Positions 26,641 to 60,501 of a stretch of DNA of 64,000 nt are shown piece after piece (position 1 is the first letter of the stretch; each line of letters starts with the position of its first letter). The notes beneath the pieces are model-generated. The model searched no databases. It worked only from the letters and a program-made list of their open reading frames with translations, and had not been told where the DNA came from. A program made the translations under genes and the position numbers. This stretch comes from Hemileia vastatrix (taxonomy: Eukaryota > Basidiomycota > Pucciniomycetes > Pucciniales > Zaghouaniaceae): positions 1,816,501 to 1,880,500 of the forward strand of contig JASXTE010000015.1 of NCBI GenBank assembly GCA_030280995.1, read 5' to 3'.

Positions 26641-26679
26641 CAATCATTTTCCATATCGGCAGAATAGAGCTGTAGATTG

Positions 26680-39384: not shown

Positions 39385-39424
39385 CACCACAGAAAATTTG
39401 GGGGGGTATTGCTAGCAATACCCC
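39385..39424. repeat. Left terminal inverted repeat with internal palindrome
   Basis: The terminus begins CACCACAG, then a G run, then the perfect 22-bp palindrome at 39403-39424 centred on GCTAGC. It is preceded by ATA, a candidate 3-bp target duplication whose second copy is not visible. Subterminal words GCTGTTGGAA repeat just inside (about 39450-39475). Confidence 0.75.
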
Positions 39425-40279
39425 TCATTTAAAAATGTTGGGAAGTGGTTGGAAAGCTGTTGGAAGGCTGTTGGGAGTTCATTGTGAAACCAGATTTAAA
39501 TTAATTGGACAAAGATTTGGTAATTGGTTAGACCTAGGTTCAACCAAACTCAATCACAGGTTTCTTGGAGCTTGGTGATTACTTTGATTTTGAGCTGAGC
39601 ACAGATTGAGCAAAGCTTGAACATATCACTTAACATATCATAATATTCACTTTCCCATCTTGTGGAAAGAAAAATTTGATATTCGTTCTAAGAATATCAA
39701 CATATATTTTCTTGCCAAGTTGGTAACAGAAGGTTAAACTGTAGTATCTCAATTATTACACTAGACTTCATAGATATTTGATAAAACATACAATTCAAAT
39801 CAATTTTAATATTATTGAGATCACCATAAGTGTCTGTCCAAAGACTTACAAAAAGTATGTTAGTATCAAGACATCGTTCTAGGTAGTAGTTTCAATTTGG
39901 ATTTTGAACTGACATCTAAAGCATTTTACTATTAGACAGAAACATAAATAAGTGTAATAAGAGTGAAATTATTCTATTTTGTGATTATAATGTAACAATA
40001 AAGCACATTTTTATTGAGAAAATTTTTCTTCCTCCACAAACCAAAATTTACTCTATAGGCTCAAGATTTATTTTTAAGCCATATTATTCATTTCAGTTAT
40101 CATTTATTTACTTCCAATATTTATTAAAAAGATAATAATAATACATGTGAAAGAATTATGAGCTTAGCATAGCATATTCTAAAAAGTTATTTTGTCGTTT
40201 TATTCAAAACTGATTCTCCATTTTTTGCTTCAATTCATCTTTTAACAACCACTATCTTCAGATACTATTCTTACTTAAT

Positions 40280-42708
40280 ATGTCAAGTCTCAGATGTGTT
40301 GGACAGTTCTCAATAACAATCGATAAAATTTATATGAATGTAATTTCAAGATTTCAAAACTTACCGACCCCCACAATTTTACAGCGAGGCCATTCGAATG
40401 TTCATATTTTTGGACTATTTGAAGAAAGAAAACCAACCCTTGTCGGTAATCTTTCTCAAGTGCAGAGTCAGCACATTGGACCACTATTGGGTGACATTGG
40501 CTCTGGATCTCACCATTTAAACCAAAGAAGTGCCTTGAATCCTATGAAGCCTTTCTATTTTCATGCTTACTTGGTTCCAGTTTTTGGTAATCAGTATCAA
40601 CTTTGGGGATGCCTCTTTTCTTCAAGTACACTAATCAGTCTTGCTAAAGAAGCATTTTCTTCTGCTCAAATCGATTTATGTCCAATCCTGAACTATGAAT
40701 TCACTATCTTTTTTAATATCCCGCATGTAATTTTTGAAGGCTCTTTCCAAATATCTCAGAGTACTCAAGATTGGAAAGCTGATCAACTTATCTGAGGAAT
40801 CAAAACAGTTCTCAAAACACATCAACTTCAAGCAATAAATTTTATGATTGACAATGAACGAATGTTAAAGGAAAAGTTGGATATCATGTGAAGGCACCAG
40901 GACAACCATTGGCTTAGAACTGGATTCGATGACTATAAAGATCAGTTTCCTAACAATCAATTAACGCCTGAAGGAAACGGGTCAATACTTGCTGATGATA
41001 TGGGTTTGGGAAAGACACTTTCAACTCTTTCTCTTATAAGTGCAACTCAAGGTGAAGCAAGACAATTCCAGGTATCATAAAATCAAGAAGGTATTAATCG
41101 GAGTTCAGCCACACTGATTATATGCCCCCTGGCAACACTATCGAATTGGATCAATGAAATAAGTGTGCACTTTGAAGATAATGCGCTTCCTTTCAAGGTT
41201 CTTTATGGGAAGGATTGTCAAAATACTAATGTCAATGAGCTACAGGACACTGCTATTGTTTTAACGACCTATGAAATAGCTAGCCCAACGATGTCAAAAA
41301 ATCAAAGCCAAAAAAAGATACCGGTGACTCAAATGCTCTTTTGGTATAGAGTTGTTTTAGATGAAGCTCAGTTAGTGCCCATTTCTATATCTAAAACTTA
41401 AAACTTAATTTTTATAATCAATTTTTATAAATATTCTTTTAGTTACATTAAAAATCCTTACTCGCAGAGGGCTCAAACAATATTTGACTTGGAATCCCAA
41501 CACCGACTATGCTTGACTGGAACTCCACTTCAGAACAGGCCCACTGACCTTCAAAGTCTCATATTTTTTCTTAGAATCAAAAAGTGGCAAGAAGACTGGT
41601 TATGGAAGAATTTCCTTTTTCCAGGTTTGCAAAAAGGAAAGGCTAATTCTATTAAATCAATCAATCACTTAATGAAAGTCATAAGCCTACGTAGAACAAA
41701 GGATGCAATTTTGTCTCTTCCAAAAAAGATTCAAAGGGGGATATCGGTTCAATTAGCAGATCCATGGAGGTCTAAACTTGATGTGCTTCAAGAAGGATTC
41801 ACTGAGCGATATGGGCCCTCCAGAAGCACTGACTTCCCTTGGGACTCATCTGAGTTTCTAAGAGAGCTGATGATTTTAAGAAAATTCTGCAACCATCCAA
41901 TCTACAAAAATCTGGATGAAACTACAACTTTTGATTTCACCTGGCAGCATTCCGCAAAGATTTGTCATCTTATAGGCCACTTAAAAAACTTTTTGTCTGG
42001 TGAAAGGGGTATAAATTTTCCAAAAGCTGTTATATTCTCCAACTTTGCAGACTTTTTGCAGATGTAAGTGATTCTATAATGAATTGTTTTACAAAATTGT
42101 GTTGGCTTATTAAAAACAATTTTCTAATATTTCAAAATAGAATAAAAATGGCTTTAGATGACCACAATATTAGGTATACCCAGCTTACGGGTGAACTCAG
42201 CAGGACAAAGCAAGACAAAAACATGCATGAATTCCATTTTAATAGAAATTGCCAAGTTTTAGTTGGAACGATTCAGGCTGCAGGAGTGGGTATAGATCTC
42301 AGGTGTGCTCAAAATGTATATATAATGGTGAGCTCAATGTCTTTTATTTCATATTAAGAACAAAAATATTAAATTTTTTATATGTTCAATGTTGAAATAG
42401 GAGCCAAATTGGAATCCAGCAGTTGAGCAACAGGCTGTTGATCAGCTGTATAGAATGGGGCAGAAAAATGAAGTAAATGTTTTGAATTATTTTGTACAAG
42501 GAAGTATAGAATTCAGCATGTATAAGATTAAAAGGAAAAAAATGGAGCTAACAATGTAAGCCAAATTTCATTTCTATAAATTTTAATGATAATAGTAATC
42601 ATTAAAATTATGTTTTTGTTTTCAAGGCTAAGTGTCCCAAACAGTGGAAATGAGGAGTATGAGTGTGCAAACCTATTATTAAGGGAGTTTGTCAATCACT
42701 CACATTAG
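40280..42708 (+). pseudogene. SNF2-family (Rad5/HLTF-like) DNA-dependent ATPase, copy B
   Basis: The full set of SNF2 motifs is visible. Motif I is ILADDMGLGKTL (Walker A). Ia is TLIICPLATLSNW. Motif II is split by a 72-bp intron (41371-41442) whose removal gives DEAH followed by YIKNP. III is LCLTGTPLQNR, IV KAVIFSNFADF, V VLVGTIQAAGVGIDLR and VI QLYRMGQKNEV. Further introns lie at 42064-42140, 42328-42400 and 42556-42626. The N-terminal 170 codons are unrecognised. Two TGA codons (about 40793 and 40887) and a possible break near 41078 interrupt the frame. No RING finger is found between motifs III and IV. Likely role: chromatin or DNA translocation for the transposon. Stop TAG 42706-42708 overlaps the convergent X1 gene. 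Confidence 0.85.
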
Positions 42709-43812
42709 AGGAACAAAGAATTTCAAGGAGAGCAGGTAAATTTATGGGATTTTGAGGATTTAAAAGTCTGAGTTGTTGAGGATTTAGAGATGCAAGATAT
42801 AAGGGAGAATAACAGTCATTCGGCAAACCCCGGGGGACATGAGAAGGATTAAGGTTAGGGGATAATGTTGAAACCAAACTGATTCTTTTGTACAAGGCCA
42901 AGTCCTTTAGCACACTTCCAGAGTAGGTTGAATTATCTCGAATATCAAAGTGTTGTTGGTCAAGATATTGTGCAACTTTAGAAAAATCTTCAGACCTCCA
43001 TTGCATTAAGATACGTCTTAACGATCCATCATTATCAATTTCGGTGTCTGAACAACACTTGATGTTTTTGAAAAGGTTGTGATAAGTTTCACAATGTGGA
43101 AGTTGTTTAAGAAGTTTAGTTCAGTTAACTGAATTCTAAGAATCTTTGTTATTTGAAATAAAGGTCATAAATAAAAACGGTTGAAAAAAAAGGGATTTTC
43201 ATACTTTTTTTTTATTCTTTATTTATGCTTTCTCACTTTGATTATTTCTTGAGAGCTATGAGAATCCTTCCCAAGTCTTAATCTATCAGCATGACCTAAA
43301 AACCAACGGTGAAGAACTCCTATTTGATTTGAGAAGCTAATTTGAGTTGAGTCAATTGGATATGCAATCAAATTATTGGTTTTTAAGGCATTGTCCCAGT
43401 GTTTAATGAGAATATTTGCCAAGACCTGGTTCCATTTGTCAAACCAATCTAGGTTCCAAGCAAAAGTTGATCCTGGGAAACCACACATGCGAAGGTGCTC
43501 AATAAAAGATTTACGGAAAATTGGTGGAAACTTTTCCGAAACCGCTGAATTTTATTCTGGATGAGGTAGTTCAAAGGCAATGTTGCAAGAATTCATGTCG
43601 AATGATGAAAATCTGTCTAATTGCTCTTCAGTAGGGTTTTGTTTCCATCCATTTGATTCTGGTGACATATCCAAAAGTGAATGACAAAAATTGTGTATAG
43701 ATCTACAAAAGTGAGAATTAAATGGAGGCAAAGTCTCATTAAAAATTCTATTAAGTGTTCTTGTGTTTGTGGGCAGGTTTCCATGAGGAAAGTAAGAGCT
43801 ACTAGGGTTCAT
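42692..43812 (-). pseudogene. Family-X transposon-associated protein X1, copy B
   Basis: Start ATG is at 43812 (MNPSSSYFPHGNLPTNTR). The first block ends at a TAA at 43552-43554 that copy A lacks. The next block (43488-43219) has TFAWNLDWFDKWNQVLANIL and GVLHRWFLGHADRLRLGK. An intron-like gap leads to 43006-42692 (WRSEDFSKVAQYLDQQH, then VPRGLPNDCYSPLYLASL). Two features also occur in X2: the aromatic FAWNLDW...WNQV segment and the GLPxDCYS motif. It overlaps the SNF2 3' end by 17 bp and diverges from the tnp2 gene. Function is unknown. Confidence 0.65.
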
Positions 43813-44887
43813 AAATAATTAGATTAAGAAAGTGTTCAATTAAATTAAATAAAGAGGAAGGATAAATTGTTGAGCTCCAAAACTTTATGATCAAAGTTGA
43901 TTTAAGGAGAAATATCACAAAAATTAAGAATAAGAAATATTTCAACTTTATGGAATTATAATATGCATAAATTATATTTTTATATGCAACTTGAACTCAA
44001 AAGGAATGGTATAAAATAAAGAGAATGATTATGTGATAAAAGCAGACTCATTTAAGAAACAGATTTTTTTTTCTTTTCAAAAAATTCTTCCACAAAAATA
44101 ATTTGTTAAATGTGAGGCTATGTTCATTTTTTGATTACCAAAAAATTATTTTTGGTCCAATATGATAGTAATACATATTATATTGAGTAATTTTTTTCAA
44201 CCTGAATAAATAGACTAGAGTGTCACTTCATCACATTTATGTATGAAAAGTTATACAAGGTTTCAGCTTTTATGTAATTCTTTAAGGTTTACACTTTTGT
44301 AGCATGTATTATTTGAGTATTTTTGATTTTTTCTTTATAGAAAATTCTACCTACTACAGACCAATTTTCAAATTGAAAGAAATATGTTTGTGATTGTTTT
44401 TTACAAAATATTAAACTTATTTTTGGGTTTAACTTTGATTTTTGGGGTAATTTTTTAAATAATTATGTTAAAAATATGGATTACTTTTCTTATAGTCCAT
44501 AACTAAGAATTTTTATCAAAATCAAATAATTATAGGGTAGTTAGATATAACTCAGAAGGCATTTGATAGAAAAATAATTAAGATGCTTGTGCGTACAACA
44601 GAATTTTTTCTATGATAGAAAATATTCTGATAAACATGCATGCATTGTTGTACAAATGCAGAGAGTATACAGAATACAAATAAAGTAGACTGCATAACTT
44701 TAAATTAATATATAATTTATCCAATTAAAAATTAAACATTTAAACTTAAATAATTTCAACACATATTCCATCATATTCTTTTGATAAAAAAATGTAGCTT
44801 ATATTAGCTAGTGCCTTTCAAAAAAAGGAATACCTTCAATCGGTAACTTCGAATAGCTAACTTATTCCTACAATTATCACAATTACA
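43813..44887. other. AT-rich divergent spacer between X1 and tnp2, unit B
   Basis: No gene. This is the counterpart of 1936-3029. It carries candidate promoters of X1 (-) and tnp2 (+). I can define no motif with confidence. Confidence 0.5.
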
Positions 44888-47800
44888 ATGCCTCCATTTT
44901 TTCATGTATTTCAATGTCAAGATCTTGGATGTGTCAATAGAAAGTATCAAACTTCTTCTGGGTCCTTTGAAGTTGGTATGGCTTTCAAAAGCTCTAATTC
45001 TTATGCAAAACATCAAGAGGAAAGAAATAGGAAGGCCCAGATGGTTATTTCTTCCAACAATCCACTTAACATTGGAAGTTCCCGCTCCACAGAAACAGCA
45101 AGCTGTATATCTATAGTTCAATGTGAGAATTAAAGTCTTTATGATGTTTCAATGATTTATTACATAGGGGCAGTTGCTATTGGGGGCAGAAGTATCTTCA
45201 ACAGTCTCTAGAAACTCAAATCTTGGGGAACGGTATAGCCAAATGATTATGTGGCAAGCAGCAAAGCTTTCTCTGATTCATAATTTGAGCAAAGAAGGTT
45301 GTACTCAATTTTTGGATGAAGAAATTAAGAAGCTCAAACTTCTAGGTGATAGTGGAATACTGGATTCTGATAGCATTGTCCGCCTGGTCCCACACTCAAT
45401 AGATACAGTTTTTAGTCGATTAAAGCTCAATCAATCATTTTTCACTAAAACATGCTGTCCTAAATGCTTTGCTCTTTATGAGTATAACTCTGAATCTCAA
45501 CCATCTATACTATGTTGCAATAAACCGTTTCTTTCATCATCAAAGCGCTATTTAAAAATGTTTGGAGCAGGACAAATTGCAGTTAAATGTGATGAAAGGC
45601 TGTATTTGATGGAGGAACATCAAGAACATGTAAAATACTTATCTCTTAAAAAATTTCATCACCATTCTTTTATTGACTGGCTTAAGGAGAAGATCAAACT
45701 GTTCAAATTTTAGCTTCTGATTGAGAAGAAAACCCCTGCGGCAGAACATGTAGAGTGTGATTTGATGAAGGATGTTTGTGATGGTTCAATTTGGAAAAAC
45801 TTTCCCATAACCACTCCAGCTCTGGATAGCAATGATGATGAATATACAATAACTTCAGGCAACACTACGCAATATAGGGGGTGGACTTGCTAGCAAGTCC
45901 TCAACCTGAACTCAGATGGAACTCAGATGGAACTCAGACTGAACTCAGACTGAACCCATACTGAACTCTACTTGAACACCCACCTAAAACTGTTCTGCTG
46001 AGTGGTGTTCATCCCTGATTGTATGGTTCCTTTATCAATAGCTCAATGTGTGTTCAATCTATGGTGAGTTTGGGTCCAAGGTTGCGGACTTGCTAGCAAG
46101 TCCGCCCCCCATATTGTGTGGTGCAACTTAATGTTTACTTTATATGTCGACTGGTTTAGGCCTGGTGGCAATAGGATTGGAGGTCATCAGAAGTCTGTAG
46201 GCAATATTATGATGGTGTGTATGAACCTACCTCAAGAAGATAGATACAAAATGGAAAATCTTTTTTTGTATGCTATTATACCCGGACCAACAGAACCCAC
46301 AAGTGAACAGCTTAATCACCTTCTAAAACCACTGGTTAATGATCTACAAACTCTATGGGATGGTATATTGATTGAAAAGACACATCTTTATCCACGAGGC
46401 CGGAAATTAAGAGTTGAATTGTTCTCTTTGATAGGTGACATTCCTGCAATACGAAAATTGGCTGGATTTTCGAGTCACTCTGCAAAAATGTTCTGCTCTT
46501 TCTGTAATATCTCTAAAGATGAAATTAGTGAAAAGAATGTGGGAAATTTTTCATTACGGAATCATGAGGATCATATGTGCTGGGCAACAAAGTGGAAAAA
46601 TTCTAAGTCACATTGGGAGCGTGTATCAATTGTTCAAAATCATGGGGTACGATGGAGTGAGCTGAATAACCTTGAATATTGGCGTCAAACTGAATATTGC
46701 TCAATTGATGTTATGCATTCACATATGCTTGGCAACCTAAAAGATCACAGTCTAAGCTATTTTCAAATCCAAAATGCAGCAAAAGATATAGAAAGAAAGC
46801 TGGAAAAGGATAAAAATTGGCATGTAAGAGAAGAAGATGATGATTTCTTCTCTGATACTTCACTGCACAAACATTCAAAAAAACGTAGAAGTAGCTTAAG
46901 CACCACGAATAATGATGATGATGATACAGGACACACAAGACAGCACAAGCGGCAAAAAGGTACGAGTTCAAGACAGTCATCAAGTCATCATGGACTAGAT
47001 AATGAAGGATTGGGAACAAATCAATCAAGAAGCCAGAGTAGGTCATCCAGCTCCAAATTTATTCCTCCATATAGAGATGTGGCCTCAATACAGTCTCACA
47101 GCAGTGACAGTAGGAATTCATTGTATAACTTAAGGCAAAGAAGCATTATCATATCACAGAGTGAAGGATCTCACTCATCAAATGAGACAGCTAGAGATGA
47201 AGAAAATAAAAGGAAAGGTAAGGAGAAAGAAAATGAAGGTAGTAGTAATCCACGAATCACAGCAGCAGAGCTACAGGTTGTATGGAAGATGATTGATCAA
47301 GTAAGAAGACCTTCCTTGCTAACACGAGTTCCAAAATCAGTAGGATCTAAAAAGGCAGGATCCCTCAAGGCAGCAGAATGGCACATGCTGTATACTCTCT
47401 ACTTCCCTTTGTCACTTATACCCCTTTGGTTTGAAAAATTTAAAGAATCTGAATCTTCAGCTTCCTCAGCTGATAAACCAAGAGAATATTATCTTCTCAA
47501 GTCACTTGTAACATTATGCTCAATCACCAATTTTTTGACATTAAAAAATATACAGAATAATGAGCTTAAAGATCTAGATCAATTTCTGTTAGATTATCGT
47601 GAGTGCCTTGAAGAGGGTTGGAAGAATATTAATGCAAAGCCAAATCTGCATATCACTCAACATTATCCTGAAATGATAAAGCGTCTTGGTCCACCATCAG
47701 GTACAGCTACTTGGTCTGGAGAGCGGGTGAATCATATATTATCTGAAATTCCAAACAATCACCATCCACGTATGTAATGTTTGTAAGCAATGATTTAAAA

Positions 47801-48530
47801 ACTCAGCTGTGCTAATTTATTAATATTTACCACAGGAGAGATACCGCTAACAATGCTCAAACATTGGTATCGGAAGTCTAGGGTATTAGATCTTGGTGAA
47901 GCTGAAGATAATGATCAATGTGAGACTAAAAAAATCCATATTGATCTCGATAAACAAAACAAATGGATCCATCTAAGTATGGCATTATTTACTAAATGGG
48001 TAAGGGCACGAATGGGAAAAGAAACTTCAAGATGGGCTTTGACACCATTGGAGAAAAGTGGGGATCGGGTAGTTGAAAATGTAGCAAGCATATTGATACA
48101 TGGAAAGAGGTTTACTAGTTACCATCGACACATTGCTAATTCAACAATTGAATTCTACTATGGAAAAGATAGCCAGTTTGGGCAAATTGATGATCTTTTC
48201 AGATCAAAGGAAGAGATTGATCAAATATATTTAATAGTAAGTCCTTTCAAAGAGCTCCGTCCAGAAGAAACATCAAAGGATCCCTATGAGCTTTTCCCAC
48301 AAGTGCATTGTCGGTTAGTAAGAGTAGCCAAAGCAACTCAAATTGTGATTAAGAAAGATGCAATAATTGGACATGCAGCTACTGTCGAGCACAAAAAAGG
48401 AATGTTTGGAATCAAAGACGAGGTTGTCACTGCCATTGGACTGCAGACAGTAGTGAGTGAAAAAATTAATCAAATTTATTTTCTGTTGACTAACATCTTT
48501 GTGTTAATTTGGGATTGGGGAAATTTGTAG
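44888..48530 (+). pseudogene. tnp2-type CACTA transposase, copy B (MITE-interrupted)
   Basis: Start ATG is at 44888 (MPPFFHVFQCQDLGC). Intron 1 is near 45105-45167. A zinc-binding-like CCPKC...CC follows, then a TAG at 45711-45713. A 261-bp MITE (45863-46123) then splits the gene. After it come the tnp2 landmarks: LYVDWFRPGGNRIGGHQKSV, MVCMNLPQEDRY, IIPGPTEPTSEQLNHLLKPL, FSSHSAKMFCSFCNISKDE and CSIDVMHSHMLGNL. A long Ser/Arg-rich linker follows, then a helical C-terminal domain (LGPPSGTATWSGERVNHIL). Intron 47770-47835 joins this to 47836-48530. The last exon may splice further, since GTGAGT follows GLQTV at about 48452. The enzyme would bind terminal repeats and move the element; this copy is inactive as it stands. 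Confidence 0.85.
45863..46123. mobile_element. 261-bp CACTA-type MITE inserted in tnp2
   Basis: Left end CACTACGCAATATAGGGGG, right end CCCCCCATATTGTGTGGTG. Each has the internal palindrome GGACTTGCTAGCAAGTCC (45883-45900; 46086-46103). The target duplication CAA is perfect. Unit A, which lacks the insertion, reads GGTAATTTAATGTTTA where unit B minus the MITE reads GGCAACTTAATGTTTA, so the empty site is directly observed. Inside the left end, four to six ACTCAGATGGA/ACTCAGACTGA words form subterminal repeats. Confidence 0.95.
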
Positions 48531-48956
48531 GATTGGTGATATTTGTAAATGGTGAAAGAAATAATTCAATGCTCGATTAAAAAATTCAATGCATCCAACT
48601 TACCTTATCATAAATCAGTGAACAATTACTTTGGTTGCTTTTATTGCGAGAGAACCCATGCTTTCAATGAGTCATTTTTATCTTAAATGTAAGAATGAAA
48701 GAAATAAAATCATGATAATGAGAAATATGATAAAATTTTTACTTAATGAATGATCTTCTTGCTCATTCATCTACTATAAATAGTTTGACCTTCCAACTTT
48801 AGCTGATAGCTATATATTATTCACTTTATTTTTCGACAAGAGAACATACACATTTACAAGACTATATACATAGTATCTTTTTTTACTTTAGCTTTGATAG
48901 GTATAAATTTTAACAACTGATTATTTTTATTTTATTTTATTTTATTACAGTTCATT
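48531..48956. other. Spacer between tnp2 and X2
   Basis: About 430 bp of AT-rich sequence ending in a TTTTATT-rich tract and TTACAG just before the X2 start. This could be a 3' splice site, so tnp2 and X2 could in principle be spliced together in frame (GLQTV to FIMDDN), or the tract may be an intron in the X2 5' leader. Confidence 0.4.
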
Positions 48957-50634
48957 ATGGATGATAATTTTGAAGGGATGTCTGTTGACCCAACCGATTC
49001 TGATTGTTTTCCGCCTCAACATACTAATACTGGAAATACTCCTCCACCACCCTCTGCTGATCCACCTCCAGATGCATCTCAATCTGTACCACCTAATCCT
49101 AACCCACCACCTAATCCCAATCCAGGCCAAGAGTCTCATTCAGAACCGAGAAATTTTAATCCCAATCATCCTTCTGCTTCTGAAAGTGCTGATCAGCAAG
49201 CTGATCAGCTAGGAAGAGATTGGGCTAGTGAAGTATTGAGGGAATTTTTCGGAGACCAATAATCATCTGCTCAGCCTAACCAAGGAGCAAGCACAACTGG
49301 AGCAGGTAAGTCAAATTTGTAGTGTATTCTTTTATTGAAAAATAACCAATTTAATTAACTTATTTGAATTGTTAGTAAATCCCTCAATCATTATGGGTAT
49401 CAGTGATTACCACAGACTCAATTCAGCAGAGTCTCATGAGCGAGAACGGGGGTTAAGGGCTGTAAGAGGCTTAGTTAGAAGGAATGATTTTCCCAGGAGC
49501 TCGGACAGTCTAAATAGAAATATTTACCACTTTCTGAAGTATTGTCTTGGGGGACCAACACAAATATCAAAATATCCTGCGAGCCCAACACCTTTGGAGA
49601 TTGAAAATTGGAAAGATTGGAACCAATTAAAACTAAAAACCATTCAAACTGTCCTAATCCAAGTCCAATCTTCTAACCTTGCCAATTCTGCAGCTGATCG
49701 ACAATTTCTGATAACCAATTCTATAGCCTTCTTGTAATCCAAAATTCGACTACCTGAATTTTTTCCAGCACCTGAGCCTCGAGGACTAAAAGGAGGAGCA
49801 CCAATCCCACTTTCTGTCAAAAGAAACTTAGAGCGTGAATTGCAAGAAAAAGGTTTTCGGAAATTCGCGTTTGATTGGACTTGCTGTGATTTTTCAGAAT
49901 CAACTTGGAATCAAGTCATGGGAAGCATAGTATGCGACCACTGTACCAGATGGCTCACCACCTTGAATACAATCAATCAGTCAAAGCTTCAGTTCACTCA
50001 ATGTGTTATTAAGAAATGGGTAGCTAATAAGGGGAAGGAGATAATAAGGTTGTTTGGGCAAGAAGAGGAAAGGGTAGCAAGAGAAAAGATTGAAAAGAGA
50101 GCAAGGGCACAAGTAAAACGTTATTGGACCAAGGTAAGTTTTTTATTTTACTTTGCTTTTTGTTATTATGAAGCTGATTTAGTTGGAATTCAGATTGCTA
50201 GTGCATGCTACAAGTTAGCAAGAGATCTCTGCAGTGATGTGCCAGGTTTTGTTGTGCTTTTTCATGATACTAGGTGCATCTCTGATATCGAGGAAGGCCC
50301 AGCACCAGCCCCAACTGCACCTATCCGAGATATTCCTGGATGGCAAAATCCTGAACTCAATGATTTGTTTAAAAAAATGGATAAGATGACAAAGGACTTA
50401 GCCCATACACCAGCTCAAAGAAAATCAGCATTAAAAACATATTCATGGTCATCAGAAAGGACAGTTGCACAAAATGGTATATTCAATGTTCCCAAATACC
50501 TCCCCAAGAATTGCTATTCAGCAACATTTTTGCAAGGATTATCTGTGAATGAACGTGAGTCACTTGGGGTTGGAGCTGATATTGATCTGGTAAAGATTCG
50601 AGAATCAATTAATAGAGAATCAACATCATCATAA
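48957..50634 (+). pseudogene. Family-X protein X2
   Basis: Exon 1 (48957-49262) starts MDDNFEGMSVDPTDSD and is Pro/Asn-rich, ending in a TAA. The second block (49369-49737, SIIMGISDYHRLNSAESHER) ends in a TAA. The third (49840-50634) has FAFDWTCCDFSESTWNQVMG, a basic stretch (EKIEKRARAQVKRYW), an optional 60-bp intron (about 50134-50193, GTAAGT...TTCAG) and the C-terminal signature VPKYLPKNCYSATFLQGLSV. The FAFDW...WNQV and LPxxCYSxxFLxxL segments match X1 by eye, so X1 and X2 look like diverged paralogues on either side of tnp2. Function is unknown. Confidence 0.65.
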
Positions 50635-50849
50635 CTTAGGTATAACGGTGGTCTTCTGTGTAATATAGCTATCTTATATTGAATTTTATGTATTCTGTTT
50701 TTTCTCAAAGCAGCTTGGTAAATGTTATAAAGTGATATTGAGAGAGAGTAACATTTTATTTAAGAAAAACAAATAATGTATGAGATATAAAAATGTATTT
50801 TCCACAAATTGATGGTCCATACCTCTTTATGTCACATTTATGTATCCAT

Positions 50850-52365
50850 ATTAATTTCAATCGAATTTAATGTTGACCAATACATAGTGAATACACGCTA
50901 TGCCACTTATACTTGCCAGGCATTGCTACCATTAAATATGCCAGTATCAAAAATTATTTTTGATCGAAATTAATGAGCATGATAATCATGAATTTCTGGA
51001 GTCAACTGCTTATTTTTATGCATGGTGCCTTGCCAACATTAATTTCGATCGAAATTACTTTTTATACTGGCATATTGCATGGTGTCTATTCCTGGAAAGT
51101 GTAAGTGGCATAGTGTGTATTCATTACGTATTGGTCAACATTAATTTCAATAGAATTTAATATTGACATTTTCATATTGAACCCAAACCAGCAAACGACC
51201 CAAAAAATTCTTCATAAAACTGCTCATTAATTTCGATCGAAATTAGTGAGCACCATATACATATTGAATGGTAGTTATATCTGGTGTGTGTAAGTTGTAA
51301 AGCTTGTGTTCAATGTTTATTGGTCAACATTAATTTTGATTGAAATTAATATTAATGTGTAAATGATATTTACATGCTCAATATGCATTGTAATGTGTTT
51401 ACTTAAGAATAGAGTGCCCTACTTTTCATCTTACATAAAAATGCTTGGTGGCATGTCAAATTCAATTTTTATTAAAATTAATGTTGACATGTTACCATGC
51501 ATAACAGTAAGCAACTGACTGAATAAATTGATGATAATCATGAACCTTAATTTCGATCAAAATTAATGTTGCCAAGTGCAGATTGAAAAAAAGCTATGCC
51601 ACTTACACTAGCCAGGCATATTTACTATTTATTATGTATTGGTCAACATTAATTTTTATAGAAATTAATATGGATATGTAAATTTTATATTTACCCTCAA
51701 CATGTATAGTAAATTTCAATACTTAAAAATACTTGCCGTCCTTTACATGTCATGCAAAAAAGCATTATATCATTTCAACATTAATTTTGATCAAAATTAA
51801 TGTTGGCATGCCATTATGCATTGAAACAACTAACTGACTGAAAAAGTTCATGATCAAAATGCTCATTAATTTTGATCAAAATTAATGTTGAACAATACAT
51901 ATTGAATATAAGTAATCTCCGCTTACTCAGACCAGATATAACTACCATTCAATATGTATATGGTCAGCCTTAATTTTGATCGAAATTAATGGGAAGTTTT
52001 ATGAAGAATCTTCTGGGTTGTTTTCTGGCTTGGGTTCAATATGCAAATGTCAACATTAAATTCGATCAAAATTAATGTTGACCAATACATAATGAATACA
52101 CACTATGCCACTTACACTTTCCAGGCATATATACATGCAATATGCCAGTATCAAAAGTAATTTCGATCGAAATTAATGTTGGCAAGGCACCATGCATAAA
52201 AATAAGCAGTTGACTCCAGAAATTCATGATTATCATGCTCATTAATTTCGATCGAAATTAATTTTTGATACTGGCATATTTAATGGTAGCTATGCCTGGC
52301 AAGTGTAAGTGGCATAGCATGTATTCATTATGTATTAGTCAACATTAATTTTGATCGAAATTAAT
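50850..52365. repeat. ~396-bp inverted repeat inside the palindrome array
   Basis: 50850-51245 and 51968-52365 are reverse complements of each other with scattered substitutions, separated by about 722 bp. For example, GCTATGCCACTTATACTTGC at about 50897 pairs with GCAAGTGTAAGTGGCATAGC at about 52299. Each arm contains several of the array palindromes. Confidence 0.85.
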
Positions 52366-52788
52366 ATGGACATGGACTATGCATAAAATTACTATAAGTA
52401 TAGGTAAGCTAAGCAGTTAGATAAACTGGTTTGATCAAGTACACCATATAAAAATTGATGTTTTAATGCCTTGGTTAATTTCGATCAAAATTAATTTTAA
52501 GCCATGCATGTTGAATTTTATCTATGTCTGTGTAGTCCATGTGAAATGGCTTGTATTCAATATGCAGGGGTCTATATTAATTTCGATCAAAATTATGAGG
52601 TTCATTGCCTCATAAATTTGATGGTTTCTGTCAGTGTTTCATGCATGGTGCCATATGATACTTGTTGATTCCTATCAAAAATTAATTTCAACACCAATAT
52701 ATTGAATACAAACCATGGCACTTACAGTACTTGGTCATAGCTAAAATTTAATATTCTAGTCTCAAAATTAATTTTGATAGAAATTAAT
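50850..52788. repeat. Array of ~20 GATC-centred palindromes, ~95-bp spacing
   Basis: A palindrome with consensus TTAATTTCGATCGAAATTAA recurs about 20 times, at roughly 50850, 50955, 51036, 51140, 51223, 51324, 51455, 51545, 51640, 51775, 51861, 51966, 52050, 52150, 52238, 52340, 52470, 52575, 52655 and 52767. Flanking words (GTTGACCAATACAT, GGCATGCC-like, GCCACTTACACT) also recur. Most variants change C to T or G to A in the central CGATCG (TGATCG, CGATCA, TGATCA). No gene lies here. Confidence 0.9.
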
Positions 52789-53818
52789 CAGGATCCATGA
52801 AGTTTATCAATAGTGTATGAGTTAAGTTTCAAGTCATATGTTTCATCATTTTATTGCACCCATTTCTAGGTTATCTCAACAATTTTTTTCAAGTTTTATT
52901 ATATTAATCAAAACTGTGGTAAGTTGTGAAAAATTAGCTAATCCAAATCTCAAATTGAATATTAATATTTTAATAATGTTGAATGTTGCTTAAGGTATTT
53001 CATTGGGTGATTCATAATAATATTTTATCAACTTAGTAGTCCTATAACTTTTGAAAAGTAACAATATTGGTATAGTTAGGGACAATAATTCAATATCTTG
53101 TGCAGACTAAGATATATTGCAAAATAAAACTATTCAATTTTTTTTTCCCTTATTTGTATCCAAGTTTATCAAAGGTTTGGTCATGGTGCCCACACCCTAG
53201 CCTGACACTCCTCCTGTCACTTAAAAAACAAATTCTTATCTTAAATTCTAATGTTACCAATTTTATATTTATAATTCATTTCTTGTTTGATGAGGCATAT
53301 CAGTATATATGTGAATCTCGCATTGTCATCTGAAAGTAAATTTAACAAATATTCATAAAGGATTATCCTTTTTTTCATATAATATACTAATTAAGTGTAT
53401 CTCCATTGTTTAGGAGTAAATTCTAATTTAAAAAATTTGTATTTACCCATGGCAATTTGCATATGGGATATACATTTGTTATTATTTGTTTTTCACACTA
53501 AAAGTCCCCAAAGAGTTACTAGTATTCTCTGTTAGCTACATCAAATTTCACTTCAATATAAACAGATTGTGATTTAGCATGTTACTCAGTTTACCCCACT
53601 ATGAATAATACATGTTAAAAAAGCTCAAATAATATAAAATCCCCCTCTTTATGTTTTCTGCTTCTTTCATCCTCACTTTAATTTTAATCTTATTCAATTT
53701 TTTATCCTATTAAATTATCAACTTCAATTTTCTAGAATAGAGTTTCTTATAATTATTCATCATATTACATCATAATTTTTTGATATCAAATACTTTTTTT
53801 TAATATTCATTAATCAAT
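52789..53818. other. AT-rich spacer before the unknown gene
   Basis: About 1 kb, no gene. The short frame at 53100-53333 has no protein character. A C-rich patch CCCACACCCTAGCCTGACAC lies near 53190. Confidence 0.5.
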
Positions 53819-56247
53819 ATGTCTAGTATACAAAATCCTACACCTCCACTTTGTATGTATATCATGTTCCTCTCTCTTAATTTATATATTTCACTTATGT
53901 TCTATATCTTTTTTTTTAAAAAATTTGATTTTACAGCACCCAAATGTGTTTCATCCCACTCTCTGATTGATACTTGCTTTGAAGCTTTTGAGCTTGCACC
54001 ATGTCTGCCACATGGCATGGCACCTAACCCTCCTGTACTTAGCAATGAGAGGCAGGAAATAACAAGAGTTCAGTATCGCAACTTACTTGAATTGGCTAGA
54101 GATAAAACAGAAGAGCTTGTCAAGATCCTTAACAATAATCCTTCTCCTTCATATTTATCTAACCCTTGTAATGACTTACTCCAATATGTGAAAAGCCTTG
54201 AAAAATGTATGTTCATCACCTTTTTTGTCTCCTTTTAAATTAGTAGATAAGATTATTAATATTTTTTTTCTTCATATATATTTGTAGCTTATGAGGAGGG
54301 TATGATTCCTCCTGATGAAATCATTGTCATTAGGGATGATGATGAGACAGATGAACCATCAGATTTAACTCATGCTTCAACTTCTAAGGAAAATCTTGAA
54401 ACACCTGTTATCCGCTCCAAGAAAAAGAGATTATCCCAAGGCTCCTCTTTTGTTTGACGTATTAAACCGGCTTCTGCTAATGAATTTTCTGATGTATCAA
54501 ATAATAAATCTCAAAAAAAAAGCAAAGGTTTTGATAATGAGTATATTCTTGTTTCCTTTTTTTTTATTGTTATTCTTTTATCTTTAAAATTCTATCATAT
54601 ATCTCTTTTATTGCTTACATATTGTACTTTTTATCTTTCTTTTGATATTTTGTACCAGAAACTCACCTGCTGTAGATTGTTCCATCCATAAACGCCCTCT
54701 CCCTGATGAAGATGATGAAAAGAGCGATGAAAATAGCAATGATCAACTGTCAGAATATGAAGCTATGCTTGTTCATCAAAAAAAGCAAAGTTTAAAATCT
54801 TCTTCAAGACATGTTGATATGTTTGATAAAGATGATGATTCAAACAGCTCATCACCGAATTCCTTCATTTTTAAGAAGCAATACCCATCACCTCCTAATT
54901 ACCTACTTTGACCTCTTTGAAAGCTTCTCTACCAATGAAATCAACTCCAATCAAGATATTGAAAAAACCTCTAACTTATTCACCCTCAGTTCTAAAAGAA
55001 TCTGATTTGCAGGAGGAATTCTGTAAAATTCATAATTTTTATAAAGGTAGAATCAGCACGGCAAGGGTCCTCAGGTCGTGGTTGGAAATTGTTACTCTCC
55101 TCGAATTACGCTCTTCTACTTCTTCCCAAGAACCCATGTCAAATATTCCAATGTTTACTTTTCATTGGGAAAAATCTTGTGGAGAAGATTGGCTTTCAAA
55201 ACTTACTGAGTTATGTAAGTTACCATAATTTTTAGTCTTGACTTTTGTTCTTTTACTTATTTTTTTTTTTCCATTTGTAGCAAATATTTTTTTAGAGATT
55301 GATAGCTCACAGCTATGGGTACTCAATAATATTGATTTCAAAAAAATGGAATATTTATGTGATCCTGATGGTTTAAATACTGAAATTCTTTCCTCAACAA
55401 AGAAAACAGATCACCCTGAATCCAATCTTATCCGAATGCTCATGAGATTAATGATCCCAAGTGACCACTGCCGTTCTTCATGGGTATCTCTTATATCATC
55501 TTCACTTTATCTGACCACACATGAATTCAGCCAGCTTCCATCACATCAAAACATTAACTCAGATTGTCCAATTGAACGTGGTCTTCAGCTTCTAGCTCAC
55601 CTTTCAAATCTGAAGAGTCCAATTTCTGATGGCTTAGAAGTTGGTCCCACTGCACTTCAAACCCGTGATATATCAATGTCAACTCTTCTTCAAATCAGCA
55701 ATATTATCATTGATATAATTATGTCAATTATCATTCTTAAATCAAAATATTGTGCTGCAACAATATCAAGTGGCAAGACTAGAGAAGCTCAACAATAAAG
55801 TGAGAAAAACGAAAATACTAAACTGACTATAATGAGAGAGAAACAAAAGGCTGCACTAAACAAAATAAATTCTGAATACTCCCACCACCAATATCAATCT
55901 TTCACATTCTATATAATCGATGGTGTCCGTGGTTTATTTCTGAGCTCTCAAGATCATAGATTGGCTTCACCAGCTGATTGCTTGGAGGTAATATCAGAAG
56001 TTAAGTTTCTTAATTTACATGAAAAAAAAATCATTTGATGGAAGAAATAATTTGGAAAAATTTAAATAACTATATTTTAACATTAATAAAAACTTTTATA
56101 GGCAAGTGTGATCCATTTCCTTTAAAATTTGATACCCCAAGTCCTCCGGGAATTGCTAGGGCTATTTCTGCAGATTTTCTTAATCACTGGAGCTCCATTC
56201 AGCCAGTATCACCTTTTTTTGCTAAACATAGCCTTTCAATAAATTAA
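53819..56247 (+). pseudogene. Unknown multi-exon cargo gene, probably decayed
   Basis: Start ATG is at 53819 (MSSIQNPTPPL). Intron 53853-53936 (GTATGT...TTACAG) joins to PKCVSSHSLIDTCFEAFELA and a helical stretch. A second intron at about 54209-54287 leads to an acidic region (DEIIVIRDDDETDE) with a basic SKKKRLS patch and then a TGA near 54456. Later blocks are Ser/Asp-rich (54640-54911). After a frameshift near 54905 comes a better conserved-looking part (IHNFYKGRISTARVLRSWLE, WEKSCGEDWLSKLTEL, then 55290-55797 with PSDHCRSSWVSLISSSLYLT), and the tail (MREKQKAALNKINSEYSHH, then GVRGLFLSSQDHRLASPADC). No family is recognised. It is convergent with the dioxygenase gene. Confidence 0.45.
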
Positions 56248-57045
56248 TATTCCGACATGTAAATAGATAAAGTTCTGTCTATATGATATATCTTGTATAA
56301 TTCAAGTTATTTTCCTTCAAATATGTCAAAAATGTGACCATCTTTGAAATTTATTAAGTAACCTTTGACATGATTTTCTAAATTAATTATTAAAAAAAAT
56401 TATTGTAAGTCCAGCAATAACAAAGATTTTAAAATCTACTTATATGATTTCAAATACTTGTATTAAATTCTTAAATATTTTATTGTTTATATAAAAATAT
56501 GATAACTGCTCTAGTTTTGTTACTTTACCTTTAATATTATATAATCTATTAATTATTACAAATATTTTCGTTGATTGTAACATTTTTAATCAGAAGTAGA
56601 ACAATTTAAATAATTAAATGAGTACATTCTTAAAAAAATACAATTTAATCTATTATTGATTCGAAATTCTTTCTTCAACTCTTTATTATTAACTTTTTTA
56701 TTAATAAGCCTGTTTGACCTAAAATACTATACAGTTAATTTGGTAGCATTAAAAGCACATTTTTATGGCTAATATATTTCAAATTCTTTATCATAGTTTT
56801 TTTTATTTTAGAACCTTTGCTACCAATTTAATAAAAATGACATTTAAAGATTTCACAACTTATATATTTCCTCAAAAGTAAATCAAATTTTCTTATAATA
56901 TTATGAAAAAAAATTATTTTATTTCACAAATAAAAAAATAGATAATACTATAATTATCAAAACTGCAAATGTTACAGCTACTCCCAGTATTTATTATGTT
57001 TAAATTTGCATTAAGTTGTGTATATATAATGTAAATTTTTAATAT
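56248..57045. other. AT-rich convergent spacer
   Basis: About 800 bp between the 3' ends of the unknown gene and the dioxygenase gene. AT-rich with no gene; it presumably holds both polyadenylation regions. Confidence 0.5.
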
Positions 57046-58254
57046 TTATATATCTAGATTTTTTAGATTTGTCTTAACATTAGATAAATAATACTTTGCT
57101 GATTCTATTTCTTCCTCTATTAAGTCATCTCTTTTCAAAAAAACTATCAAAGCACTAATCAAATATTCTAACCTAAATTTTTCTTTTTTAATTTCTAAGT
57201 ATACTGAAATATCAATATCAAAAACATTAAGCTTTTCTATAGCATGAAAAAGTCTAGTGCTTATTTGAATAGAAGAACCTATCCTAGTGAAGCCAGGAAT
57301 TTCATGACATCTTGAGGTAAAATGCCTTAGTTGATTGGCAGGCCATAATGTCACTGTTATTCCATTAGTTGCTTCAAAGTTGTTTTTACTTCGAATTTCG
57401 GGAAACATAAGTTCTCCACCTATTTGTCGTGGTTGGGTTTTATCATACTTCATATGAATGGTGTTTTTTTCTGTATCTTTAGGAAAAAATATTCCTAAAG
57501 TATACTCACTTGCATCCTTATCAAGATGAACCTCATTAGAGAACCCATTACCATTCCCTCCAGATGTCCAAGTTAAATTACTAGCAAACGGTACACCCTC
57601 TTCTTCACTAGAAACTTTTGAAAATCCAGGAATACCAAGTTTTGCGCAAAGATTAGTTGCCTCATTGTACTTTACATATGATATTTTTTTAAAAAAATAT
57701 TCAAAGTACATTGCAATCCTCTTCATTCGTTTTTTATATTCATCCGTTTTTACAATATCATCAGTGTATTCATCTGCAAAGAAAAGCATTCAAAAATTCA
57801 GTATTTAAATTAAAAAAAGTGATACTTACGAATATGTAAAGATTTCTTTCTATCTAAAATAAAGCCACCACCAAACATTTTTCCAAAACCACCAGCTCTT
57901 TGATGATAACCATTATTTTTAATTTCATGTTCGCAGTAAGAAAGATCCTTAATGCATTGCACCATAGCTTCTAACATATCTAGTTCTTTGAGCTCATGAA
58001 TTTCAAAAGTCTGCACAAGAACATTAGGTATTAAGACACCTTTTGGTTTATAAATACTACATCCAGGAAAAAAATTGTAATAATTATTGCAATCTGTCAT
58101 ATTATTTTCATAAGATTGTGCATAGAAATGTGGCTTCTTCCCATTTGTATCCATTCCAAGAGCGTTTACAAGTTTCATTCCAGTAGCAATGTCTTTTGCC
58201 CACCTATTGTTAGAGTTCTTCCCTGGTCGTTTTTTTTTTCAAATCGTTACTCAT
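57046..58254 (-). pseudogene. TET/JBP-like 2-oxoglutarate/Fe(II) dioxygenase
   Basis: Exon 1 can start at ATG 58254. The frame is then broken by a run of ten A (plus-strand T run 58230-58239), after which RWAKDIATGMKLVNALGMD is in frame. A 56-bp intron (57774-57829, GTAAGT...TTGCAG) leads to exon 2, ending at 57046. The double-stranded beta-helix shows NEVHLDKDASEYTLGIFFP (H-x-D metal pair, about 57520-57528), GGELMFPEIRSKNNF, LRHFTS (distal histidine, about 57322) and GFTRIGSSIQIS (probable 2-oxoglutarate arginine). This layout matches fungal TET/JBP proteins, which oxidise 5-methylcytosine or thymine-type bases. Apart from the A run the gene is open and may still be functional. Another member of the dioxygenase superfamily is the alternative. 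Confidence 0.72.
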
Positions 58255-58503
58255 TGATGGTTCAATCCTAAGAGAATTCAATTTTGATTTAAAATAGAAA
58301 AAAATCAAAAATTAGAAAATAGTAACATAATTTCAATTATCAGTCAATGATACCTTTAACTTTATCATATCTTCAATATTAGAAATACAAAAGTTAGCAT
58401 ATCTACATATTAGTAAATTTATATACTTTTTCTTTATTTTAAATATTAAGAAAGCGTTTCAAAGGTATACTTTATTAAATTATACATATAAAGAGTATAG
58501 CTT

Positions 58504-59110
58504 TATCCTGTATGCATTCAGCAAGTACGAGATTTGGCTCTACACTTAATATTAATAATATAATGAAAGTATAACTCCAATACACTAGTAATATTAAAAA
58601 ACTTACAGAATTATGATATCCACATATATAAAATGAAAAATCTTGCTCTGATCAATATATTGACTTAGAAAGTTATCACTACGCAATATAGGGGGTGGAC
58701 TTGCTAGCAAGTCCTCAACCTGAACTGAGATGGAACTCAGATGGAACTCAGACTGAACTCATACTGAACCCAAACTGAACTCTACTTGAACACCCACCTA
58801 AAACTGTTCTGCTGAGTGGTGTTCATTCCTGATTGTATGGTTCCTTTATCAATAGCTCAATGTGTGTTCAATCTGTTGTGAGTTTGGGTCCAAGGTTGCG
58901 GACTCACTAGCAAGTCCGCCCCCCATATTGTGTGGTGTATACTTCAATAAATTATTAATTTTTAAATTGTAGCATTGTCCTGTATGCTTTCAGCAAAAAC
59001 GAGACTTTGAAACAACTTAAAAATCAATAAATTAAAGGTAAAGTACAAACAATCTAATTATTATTATGAAAAGCAAAACATTATCCTGTATGCTTTCAGC
59101 AAGTACGAGA
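58504..59110. repeat. Three direct copies of a 29-bp motif upstream of the dioxygenase gene
   Basis: TCCTGTATGCTTTCAGCAAG (within a 29-bp match ending ACGAGA) occurs at 58504-58532 (with a T-to-A change, GCATTC), 58976-59004 and 59082-59110, all in the same orientation. The first and third are followed by TATTAATAATATAATG. A MITE (58677-58937) splits the group. All lie 250-860 bp 5' of the minus-strand dioxygenase start, so they may be promoter elements. Confidence 0.8.
58677..58937. mobile_element. 261-bp CACTA-type MITE upstream of the dioxygenase gene
   Basis: Same family and the same length (261 bp) as 45863-46123. The left end is CACTACGCAATATAGGGGG. The right end is CCCCCCATATTGTGTGGTG, with its palindrome partly decayed (GGACTCACTAGCAAGTCC). 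The target duplication TAT is perfect. Subterminal ACTCAGA(T/C)-type words are conserved. Confidence 0.95.
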
Positions 59111-60264
59111 TGATGTTTTACTTTTCATATTAATAATATAATGGTTGAGAAAGTATTAAAGAAATATAGAAAAATGATAAGCAAAACATGAAATTACATG
59201 TCTATAAAATCTTCTTCCATTTGTAGCTGATTGATCAAAATTAATTATAAAGTTTATTTTATAATCACTGTTTTAAAAAATAAATGGTTAGATAAATAAA
59301 TTGAACATTTTTGATAAGGAATAAAGAAAAGTAAATTGACAAACAAATAAAAAAACTTTAAGTTAACTGAAAAAGAATTATTTTATAATTAATCGAAAGG
59401 GTACAGTAAAAGATACCATAAAAATAAATTCAGAATTAGAATCATTAGATTAACTTGTCTAAAGTGTAAAAAAGTGTAACAAACCAAAATGATATGAAAT
59501 GCAATAGCAAGAAAAATTTGCTTACCGGTAATCAGATAAGGTCAAGAAAATAGTACCAATAATTCAAAATGATAAAGCAAAAATATGATTGATAATTTTT
59601 GAAAAAGTTAAGTGAGAAAGAGAAAGGAAAAATAAATTGGGTGGCAAACAGATGTATATATCATGAATTTTCACTGATCACATTTTCAAAAAAATGCAGC
59701 TCTCCAAGTCATATGATAAACTTCATCTAAATTCCAAGAATGATGTTGCCAAGGCACTGTACACAGCATGATCATTTTTTCCTATGCATATACTAATTCC
59801 AGCTAGAATTCACTTGGCTGCATGTTGTACAGATGCACATTTGTGGAACACTGAATTTCACATCTAAAAAAAATTGACGCCACATAACTCTAGCTACCAT
59901 GTTTCACGTAGCTAAAAAGCATACACTCATCACATTTAAATTTACATTGCGCCAAAATTAATTCATTTTTGAATTTTTTTAAAGGGAACTATAATGTGCA
60001 CCACCTATTTCTAAAATATGAACCTCCGCACCATATTAAATTGGGAGACTTTTAATTATGCAATTTTTTTGCCGTGACCTTTTTCCTGATCTTACTTGGT
60101 TCAAAATATTGAAACATGGCCAATGTTGATGAAAGAAACATTTGATTTTGTTTCTATGTGTAAAAATGGAAGGCTGTTTCTTACTGGCTGAAGAGTGTTG
60201 TATATTTTATTTGAACAAATTTTTATTTTTTTATGTATTTTATTTAAAAAATTTACTTTTTATT
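59111..60264. other. AT-rich sequence without a gene
   Basis: No supportable gene or repeat family. It may still belong to the large CACTA-type element, but no terminus is seen. Confidence 0.5.
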
Positions 60265-60483
60265 GCAGCCAGATTTATACTGGCTGCTTTTTAGAAACCT
60301 TAATTTATGACCCAAGCCTTTGAAATTGGCTTGGGTCCCTTACATTGCAATTTAGTACTTCCAGCCAGGGGAAACCTGGCTGGAAGTGTCTCTTTCAAGC
60401 AATCGAAATCTCTAAAAGCGACTTCGATTGCTTGCTGTAATGTTTGCCACCCTCCCAGCTAATTTACTAGGCTGGGAGGTGGC
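60265..60483. repeat. Cluster of five stem-loops
   Basis: Five successive inverted repeats have different sequences: 60265-60287 (stem GCAGCCAG, 8 bp, loop 7); 60309-60337 (GACCCAAGCC, 10 bp, loop 9); 60357-60387 (ACTTCCAGCCAGG, 13 bp, loop 5); 60396-60434 (CAAGCAATCGAA, 12 bp, loop 15); 60446-60483 (GCCACC-CTCCCAGC, 13 bp with one bulged C, loop 11). The first four stems are perfect. The cluster is more GC-rich than its flanks and ends 18 bp before the LTR of gypsy 5. Hairpins 1 and 3 share CAGCCAG. Confidence 0.9.
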
Positions 60484-60501
60484 CAAAGCAGTGTGCAACG
60501 C

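What the first reader, a model, noticed from the sequence alone, without database searches (positions are those of the whole stretch)
39385..60264. CACTA-type transposon unit carrying an SNF2 ATPase, paired family-X genes and a TET/JBP-like dioxygenase
Seen: a CACTA-type terminus followed by SNF2, X1, tnp2, X2, a palindrome array, an unknown gene and a TET/JBP-like gene; SNF2-X1-tnp2 is repeated as a block in unit A. Known: fungal TET/JBP genes have been reported as expanded and associated with transposons (KDZ type), and plant CACTA elements are regulated by methylation of their subterminal repeats. Inference: the element encodes its own chromatin opener and 5-methylcytosine oxidase to stay active. 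The tnp2-SNF2-TET combination may be a distinct architecture.
Basis: partly seen in the sequence, partly recalled or inferred. Interest (0 to 1): 0.87.

Follow-up and report, generated by a model that had tools for sequence, protein, structure and literature searches.

The report
Giant transposon carrying anti-silencing toolkit
A 27,000-letter jumping DNA element with many recent copies in what is likely a rust-fungus genome carries, beside its own jumping enzyme, a gene for an SNF2-type motor protein and one for a TET-like enzyme predicted to strip methyl marks from DNA, which would help the element escape the host's silencing.

Summary
The unit is real and is one transposon. A complete copy elsewhere in the genome is 26,909 bp, bounded by 40-bp inverted termini (CACCACAG...CTGTGGTG, 38 of 40 matching). 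All 4 copies in which both ends were seen have 3-bp target duplications (AGT, TCT, AAA, CTT). Order inside: SNF2 (+), X1 (-), tnp2 (+), X2 (+), palindrome array, orphan gene (+), TET-like (-), hairpin array, AT-rich arm. The window copy is broken: it stops matching the family at 60501, MITEs sit in its tnp2 and beside its TET gene, and its SNF2 has in-frame stops. One other copy is open in every coding part sampled. Of 32 TET copies that could be checked, 25 have an exact left terminus 17-20 kb away in the right orientation (controls 0-1). Copies differ from consensus by about 0.5%, and C-to-T at TCG is about 30 times that at other C, the expected trace of cytosine methylation. TET-bearing EnSpm elements of rusts are published (Kojima 2025); a Rad5-like SNF2 gene in one is not in that paper's main text. 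SNF2 falls in a rust-only clade and shows purifying selection. That SNF2 and TET act together against silencing is inferred.

The parts
39385..39424 (+). Left terminal inverted repeat CACCACAGAAAATTTGGGGGGG plus the palindrome GGGGTATTGCTAGCAATACCCC; inserted in a Ty3/gypsy-like pol fragment (read by eye)
   Evidence: 38 of 40 bp match the right end of the complete copy
39436..39474 (+). 11-bp subterminal tandem repeat (TGTTGGAAAGC)
40280..42708 (+). SNF2 ATPase gene, 5 exons (splice sites read by eye), 711 aa in open copies; the window copy has in-frame stops
   Evidence: Pfam PF00176/PF00271; copy comparison
42695..43818 (-). X1, family-X gene
   Evidence: X1 vs X2 BLASTP
44870..48527 (+). 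tnp2 (Transposase_21) gene; pieces of 90, 781 and 243 aa open in the C67 copy; interrupted here by a MITE
45863..46123 (.). CACTA MITE inserted in tnp2, TSD CAA; absent from the copies at C84, C26 and C67
48957..50634 (+). X2, second family-X gene; no Pfam domain above cut-off and no homolog found
50851..52787 (.). Palindrome array: 19 TTAATTTCGATCGAAATTAA-type palindromes here, 20 in the complete copy, spaced mostly 85/102/132 bp
53819..56244 (+). Orphan multi-exon gene; no Pfam domain and no homolog found
57046..58260 (-). TET-like 2OG-Fe(II) dioxygenase gene (PF20515), two exons; exact start not settled
58677..58937 (.). CACTA MITE, TSD TAT; the site is uninterrupted in 28 of 29 other TET loci (the 29th stops matching at 58493)
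60264..60501 (.). Start of a second, mixed hairpin array; the window copy stops matching the family at 60501, next to an LTR/gag repeat
1..4469 (+). Unit A: older relative with the same SNF2(+)-X1(-)-tnp2(+) block, cut off within tnp2 (its upstream part lies before the window)

Best explanation
This is a 26.9-kb CACTA (EnSpm) DNA transposon family whose copies carry a tnp2 transposase, an SNF2 ATPase, two related X proteins, an orphan protein and a TET-like dioxygenase, and it likely uses the dioxygenase and the ATPase together to undo the cytosine-methylation silencing that its host is predicted to place on it. Shown: one bounded unit with matched termini, 3-bp duplications, many young copies, open reading frames in some copies, low dN/dS of SNF2 and tnp2, and strong CpG decay of copies. 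Inferred: CpG decay reflects 5-methylcytosine; the TET-like protein oxidises it at the element's own palindrome array and termini; the Rad5-like SNF2 motor strips bound proteins or nucleosomes so that the dioxygenase and the transposase reach the DNA; X1/X2 take the place of the TNPA-type DNA-binding protein of plant En/Spm. A copy transposes while it is unmethylated, is later methylated, decays at CpG and dies, as the window copy has.
For: Complete copy with termini and TSD AGT. Of 10 further TET copies sampled, 8 have the SNF2 end at the expected distance, 7 have right-end sequence, and the 3 with both termini seen have TSDs TCT, AAA and CTT. 25 of 32 checkable TET copies have an exact left terminus 17.35-19.8 kb away in the right orientation; 7 shifted controls gave 0,0,0,0,1,0,0. 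2,177 terminus matches in the genome, 0 for the reversed pattern. The C67 copy is open in tnp2 (three pieces), X1, X2, the TET exon, and SNF2 except 168 unsampled nt; C26 is the same but for a stop in its last tnp2 exon. dN/dS against unit A: SNF2 0.32 and 0.13, tnp2 0.26. C-to-T at TCG 7.9% against 0.22% at non-CpG C in 31 copies, and 9.5% against 0.34% in 13. In a rust, young TEs carry CG methylation linked to silencing (PMC8444563 passages). Rust TET+ EnSpm elements are published (PMC12730594).
Against: CpG decay in this TET-bearing element is not lower than in neighbouring repeats: the CpG/other transition ratio is 9.8-15.0 in four element pairs against 2.5 in the LTR/gag pair and 0 of 6 CpG sites in the MITE pair, so no protection is visible. 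The SNF2 protein is closest to Rad5, not to remodellers, and Rad5-type enzymes also act at forks and in repair (recalled). Most SNF2 frames seen are broken: 2 of the 11 copies with SNF2 sequence show no in-frame stop before the end, and neither is sampled in full. No expression, methylation or enzyme data were available. The TET catalytic residues were read by eye only. The copies come from a list ranked by TET identity, so its open frame is a biased sample and copies without TET would be missed. The AlphaFold model of the TET exon is worthless (pLDDT 34.6).
Confidence: 0.5

Rival explanations
1. The SNF2 protein serves transposition itself rather than anti-silencing: a Rad5-like translocase that helps excise, resolve or repair a 27-kb element or couples transposition to replication, while TET alone counters silencing.
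For: Best solved-structure match is Rad5. SNF2 sits next to tnp2 in both this element and unit A; unit A is cut off after tnp2, so it says nothing about TET.
Against: No RING or HIRAN match and a branch apart from the Rad5/HLTF proteins sampled, so Rad5's own role need not carry over. Classical CACTA elements transpose without such an ATPase (recalled).
Confidence: 0.3
2. SNF2, X, orphan and TET genes are passengers captured by the element and give it no advantage.
For: Many copies carry broken frames; DNA transposons often carry captured gene pieces (recalled).
Against: dN/dS of SNF2 well below 1 between two element lineages; open SNF2 and tnp2 in copies chosen by their TET gene; TET+ elements recur in seven rust transposon lineages (PMC12730594).
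Confidence: 0.12
3. The dioxygenase writes an oxidised or other modified base as a self-mark that keeps element DNA recognisable or accessible, instead of leading back to plain cytosine.
For: Oxidised methylcytosine builds up around TET-linked transposons in mushrooms, as summarised in PMC12730594; C-to-T decay continues in TET-bearing copies.
Against: No base-modification data for this genome.
Confidence: 0.2
4. The apparent unit is a chance nest of independent repeats (an old CACTA fragment plus a separate TET element).
For: The window copy is broken and holds two MITEs; SNF2 has stops here while the TET exon is open.
Against: The whole span is collinear at about 98% in an independent copy between matched termini with a TSD, and TET-terminus spacing is nearly constant.
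Confidence: 0.02

Closest known systems
TET+ EnSpm elements of rust fungi (Kojima 2025, PMC12730594)
   Same: EnSpm-type transposase, CAC..GTG termini, 3-bp TSDs, TET/JBP gene inside, rust host
   Different: The main text reports no SNF2 gene (0 occurrences), and the sections I read give no 27-kb size or palindrome array for them; its supplementary tables could not be read here
Large EnSpm elements of Chondrus crispus (16-20 kb, 4-5 ORFs; passage in PMC6431247)
   Same: Oversized CACTA elements with extra ORFs
   Different: Red-alga host; shorter; whether they hold a TET or SNF2 gene was not tested
Plant En/Spm (CACTA)
   Same: tnp2-type transposase, CAC.. termini, 3-bp TSD; regulation by methylation (recalled)
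   Different: No dioxygenase or SNF2 gene (recalled); the two ends here share a TIR and palindrome but no clear common subterminal repeat
Rad5/HLTF-type SNF2 proteins
   Same: SNF2 core and helicase C domain; best PDB match Rad5
   Different: No RING or HIRAN match at E up to 0.1; rust-only branch in a tree of 28 proteins
AcademH transposons that encode a helicase
   Same: A DNA transposon with its own helicase
   Different: Different superfamily; known here only from its title in a reference list

Membership tests
CACTA/EnSpm superfamily | Terminal inverted repeats beginning CAC and ending GTG | tested here: met
   Complete copy: CACCACAG...CTGTGGTG, 38 of 40 bp matched
CACTA/EnSpm superfamily | 3-bp target site duplication | tested here: met
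   4 of 4 copies with both ends seen: AGT, TCT, AAA, CTT
CACTA/EnSpm superfamily | tnp2-type transposase (PF02992) | tested here: met
   56.2 bits against cut-off 28.6 in an open copy; 49 bits in the window
CACTA/EnSpm superfamily | Subterminal repeats shared by both ends | tested here: inconclusive
   11-bp tandem repeat on the left; no clear repeat shared by both ends beyond the TIR and palindrome
CACTA/EnSpm superfamily | DDE plus C(2)C/H(3-4)H catalytic motifs | not tested
   No alignment with reference transposases was made
TET+ EnSpm of rusts (Kojima 2025) | TET/JBP gene inside complete EnSpm termini | tested here: met
TET+ EnSpm of rusts (Kojima 2025) | PU-type conserved residues and transposase branch | not testable with these tools
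   Reference sequences are in the supplement and Repbase; supplement look-ups are capped at 0 here
TET/JBP dioxygenases | Tet-like 2OG-Fe(II) oxygenase domain | tested here: met
   PF20515, 78.7 bits against cut-off 27, profile 18-208 of 211, spliced window protein
TET/JBP dioxygenases | HxD...H iron triad | tested here: inconclusive
   HLD and a downstream H are present in the translation, read by eye, not aligned
TET/JBP dioxygenases | Oxidation of 5-methylcytosine | not testable with these tools
   needs an assay
Rad5/HLTF SNF2 subfamily | SNF2 core with RING finger and HIRAN domain (recalled definition) | tested here: not met
   Only PF00176 and PF00271 reach their cut-offs; no RING or HIRAN match

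The most novel reading that the evidence does not exclude
A CACTA transposon carries a self-contained anti-silencing module: its own SNF2 motor clears the DNA, its own TET-like enzyme erases methylation at a built-in array of CpG palindromes, and this let a 27-kb element burst through a genome that methylates and mutates it.
Probability: 0.35. Interest if true: 0.85.

Novelty: new variant of a known kind. Interest (0 to 1): 0.62.

Why it matters
Transposons are usually seen as passive targets of DNA methylation. An element that brings both a candidate methyl-eraser and an ATP-driven DNA motor, and that multiplied recently despite clear CpG attack, offers a natural test of how mobile DNA defeats silencing and why rust genomes grow so large. 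It also suggests that the multi-copy short SNF2 proteins annotated as hypothetical or uncharacterized proteins in Puccinia may be transposon genes (inferred, no context seen).

Tried and rejected
Rejected: a separate young TET element nested in an old CACTA fragment. I favoured this after (98% identical TET copies beside broken tnp2), but collinearity with a complete copy and near-constant spacing rule it out. Rejected: the SNF2 stops are a family-wide loss; other copies lack them. Led nowhere: homologs of X2 and of the orphan gene (none); AlphaFold of the TET exon (pLDDT 34.6, not used); TET against solved structures by sequence (no meaningful match). Not done: separate counts of left ends, right ends and internal genes, because the genome server stayed busy. 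The 2,177 terminus matches allow 3 mismatches and therefore include right ends (2 mismatches), so they suggest about a thousand elements, deletion derivatives included; that is an estimate. In the spacing test the script counted 25 of 31; I add one TET copy on contig C11, for which no exact terminus was listed, as a miss (25 of 32). Two of the misses have a terminus at about 37 kb. The other 118 of the 150 TET hits lie on contigs or stretches beyond the printed terminus list and were not tested; two printed termini on C18 were not entered because no TET hit lies there. dN/dS of X1 (0.06) rests on a saturated pS and is not used.
Full report
What was checked. The window is C67:1816501-1880500 of an unnamed 747.6-Mb, 791-contig genome. 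A CACTA-type terminus lies at 39385. SNF2-related, Transposase_21 and Tet-like 2OG-Fe(II) domains score above Pfam cut-offs. X1 (minus strand, 42695-43818) and X2 (48957-50634) are distant relatives of each other (26% identity, E 1e-6). Nineteen palindromes of the type TTAATTTCGATCGAAATTAA stand at 50851-52787 with spacings mostly near 85, 102 and 132 bp. An orphan gene at 53819-56244 has no Pfam match and no homolog.

One element, not a nest. Loci around TET copies were compared with the window. The copy at C84 matches the window from 39385 to 60501 at 97.6-98.4%, apart from the two MITEs, and continues about 6.35 kb to a right terminus; the element is 26,909 bp, flanked by AGT on both sides. 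Its ends match over 38 of 40 bp. I then sampled 10 other TET copies at the predicted end positions. The left end with the SNF2 start was present in 8 of 10 and right-end sequence in 7 of 10. Both exact termini were seen in 3, with duplications TCT, AAA and CTT. The other two left regions held other parts of the element and the other three right regions did not match, so those copies are rearranged, interrupted or cut. In another copy (C260) one element sits in reverse inside a second one, with its edge exactly at the base called terminus in the window. As a wider test, TET hits on contigs whose terminus hits were printed were checked for an exact left terminus 15-25 kb away in the right orientation: 25 of 32 had one, at 17.35-19.8 kb, against 0,0,0,0,1,0,0 in shifted controls (plus one C11 copy counted as a miss). 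All these copies were found through their TET gene, so the share of element copies without TET is unknown, and the 150 tnp2 hits were not followed up.

Copy number and age. The terminus pattern with up to 3 mismatches occurs 2,177 times and its reversed control never. Because the right end differs from the left by 2 bases, this includes both ends, so about a thousand elements is a rough estimate. This list is ranked by similarity to the window's TET exon and is therefore biased towards intact copies. Mean divergence from the majority base was 0.40% in 31 copies of the TET region and 0.57% in 13 copies of the left end. Two copies differ by 0.26% over 9.1 kb. The burst is recent.

Intactness. 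The window copy is dead: a MITE sits in tnp2 (duplication CAA), SNF2 carries in-frame stops, and nothing homologous to the right arm was found in the window or the next 20 kb. A second MITE lies beside TET (duplication TAT); in 28 of 29 other TET loci the site is uninterrupted, and the 29th matches only up to 58493. The C67 copy has tnp2 pieces of 90, 781 and 243 aa, the X1 and X2 pieces, the TET exon, and SNF2 to its final stop all open, with 168 of 2,136 nt of SNF2 not sampled; C26 is the same except for a stop in its last tnp2 exon. The other copies with SNF2 sequence, the window's included, show stops or frame breaks in it, most of them also only partly sampled. The orphan gene was not read in C67 or C26.

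SNF2. Spliced by eye, it is 711 aa with the usual motifs (ADDMGLGKT, DEAH, LTGTPLQN) and no RING or HIRAN match. The best solved structure is Rad5 (E 4.9e-44). The nearest proteins are short Puccinia SNF2 proteins, up to 53% identical. In a tree of 28 proteins (the query, 15 of the 24 Puccinia proteins listed, and 12 others picked by hand) the Puccinia set and the query form one side of a 100/100 branch; the tool warned of long branches, the query's among them. Against unit A, dN/dS is 0.32 and 0.13 for two SNF2 parts and 0.26 for tnp2, which fits SNF2 being kept functional as these element lineages separated; synonymous change is high (pS 0.53-0.68), so the values are rough. Unit A is itself decayed, which pushes them up.

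Attack on the element. C-to-T change at TCG was 7.9% of sites x copies against 0.22% at non-CpG C in the TET region, and 9.5% against 0.34% at the left end; other CpG gave 3.6% and 4.6%. TCG-biased hypermutation of repeats is described for Pucciniomycotina in the discussion of PMC12730594, and CG methylation marks young TEs and goes with silencing in a rust (PMC8444563, passages). The palindrome array is built around TCGATCGA cores, many of them changed to TpG or CpA forms in the two copies read, so it is a cluster of likely methylation targets. Against a simple protection model, the element's CpG/other transition ratio (9.8-15.0 in four pairs) is higher than that of an LTR/gag pair in the same window (2.5), and the MITE pair shows none at 6 CpG sites. 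These comparisons are small and the ages differ.

How it most likely works. Shown: a mobile unit with these genes, recent spread, CpG decay, low dN/dS of SNF2 and tnp2. Inferred: the TET-like enzyme removes or alters 5mC on the element, the SNF2 motor gives access, and X1/X2 act as DNA-binding helpers. The main rival is that SNF2 serves the mechanics of transposition.

Known and new. Kojima (PMC12730594; I read the abstract, introduction, start of the methods, sections 3.1 and 3.4, the first of two parts of the discussion, the figure legends of the last section, and a term search) describes TET+ EnSpm elements with CAC..GTG ends and 3-bp TSDs in Puccinia and proposes escape from silencing. SNF2 does not occur in its main text; its supplement could not be read. 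My searches for a transposon-encoded SNF2 ATPase listed no report of one in a CACTA element, judging by the titles and starts of abstracts shown; the library lacks most subscription papers, and I did not look for the 2014 fungal TET/JBP study that Kojima builds on. The element is therefore a new variant of a known kind: a TET+ EnSpm with an added SNF2 gene, unusual size and palindrome arrays.

Noticed in passing
window 23675-28298: A 4.6-kb CACTA-like element (CACCACGCAATATTTGGGGGG left end, 11-bp TGAACTCAGAC repeats near it, a 132-bp tandem repeat inside) inserted in a Ty3/gypsy pol; a related gypsy copy 3' of the C84 element reads through the site without it.
   Followed up: partly
window 45863-46123, 58677-58937; also about -19.0 kb, -16.0 kb and -4.5 kb upstream (L011/L012): Family of CACTA MITEs sharing the TTGCTAGCAA palindrome next to the TIR with the giant element, perhaps mobilised by related transposases.
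   Followed up: partly
C84 copy 20.0-21.4 kb from its left end (in the window from 60264): A second array of 12 different hairpins (stems of 9 bp or more; 0 in each of 5 shuffles) inside the element, unlike the uniform first array; function unknown.
   Followed up: partly
right 5.8 kb of the C84 copy: AT-rich (19-24% GC) arm without ORFs of 90 aa or more.
   Followed up: no
window 60572-63728: Tandem LTR/gag-like repeat with a spacing of about 1,779 bp directly after the break of the element.
   Followed up: no
window 9.7-17.7 kb, 28.3-31.0 kb, 38.3-39.4 kb: Ty3/gypsy fragments, one with a chromodomain beside an integrase match (the fragment at 38.3-39.4 kb read by eye).
   Followed up: partly
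L043/L044 (G000:C260): One giant element inserted in reverse into the orphan gene of another copy.
   Followed up: yes
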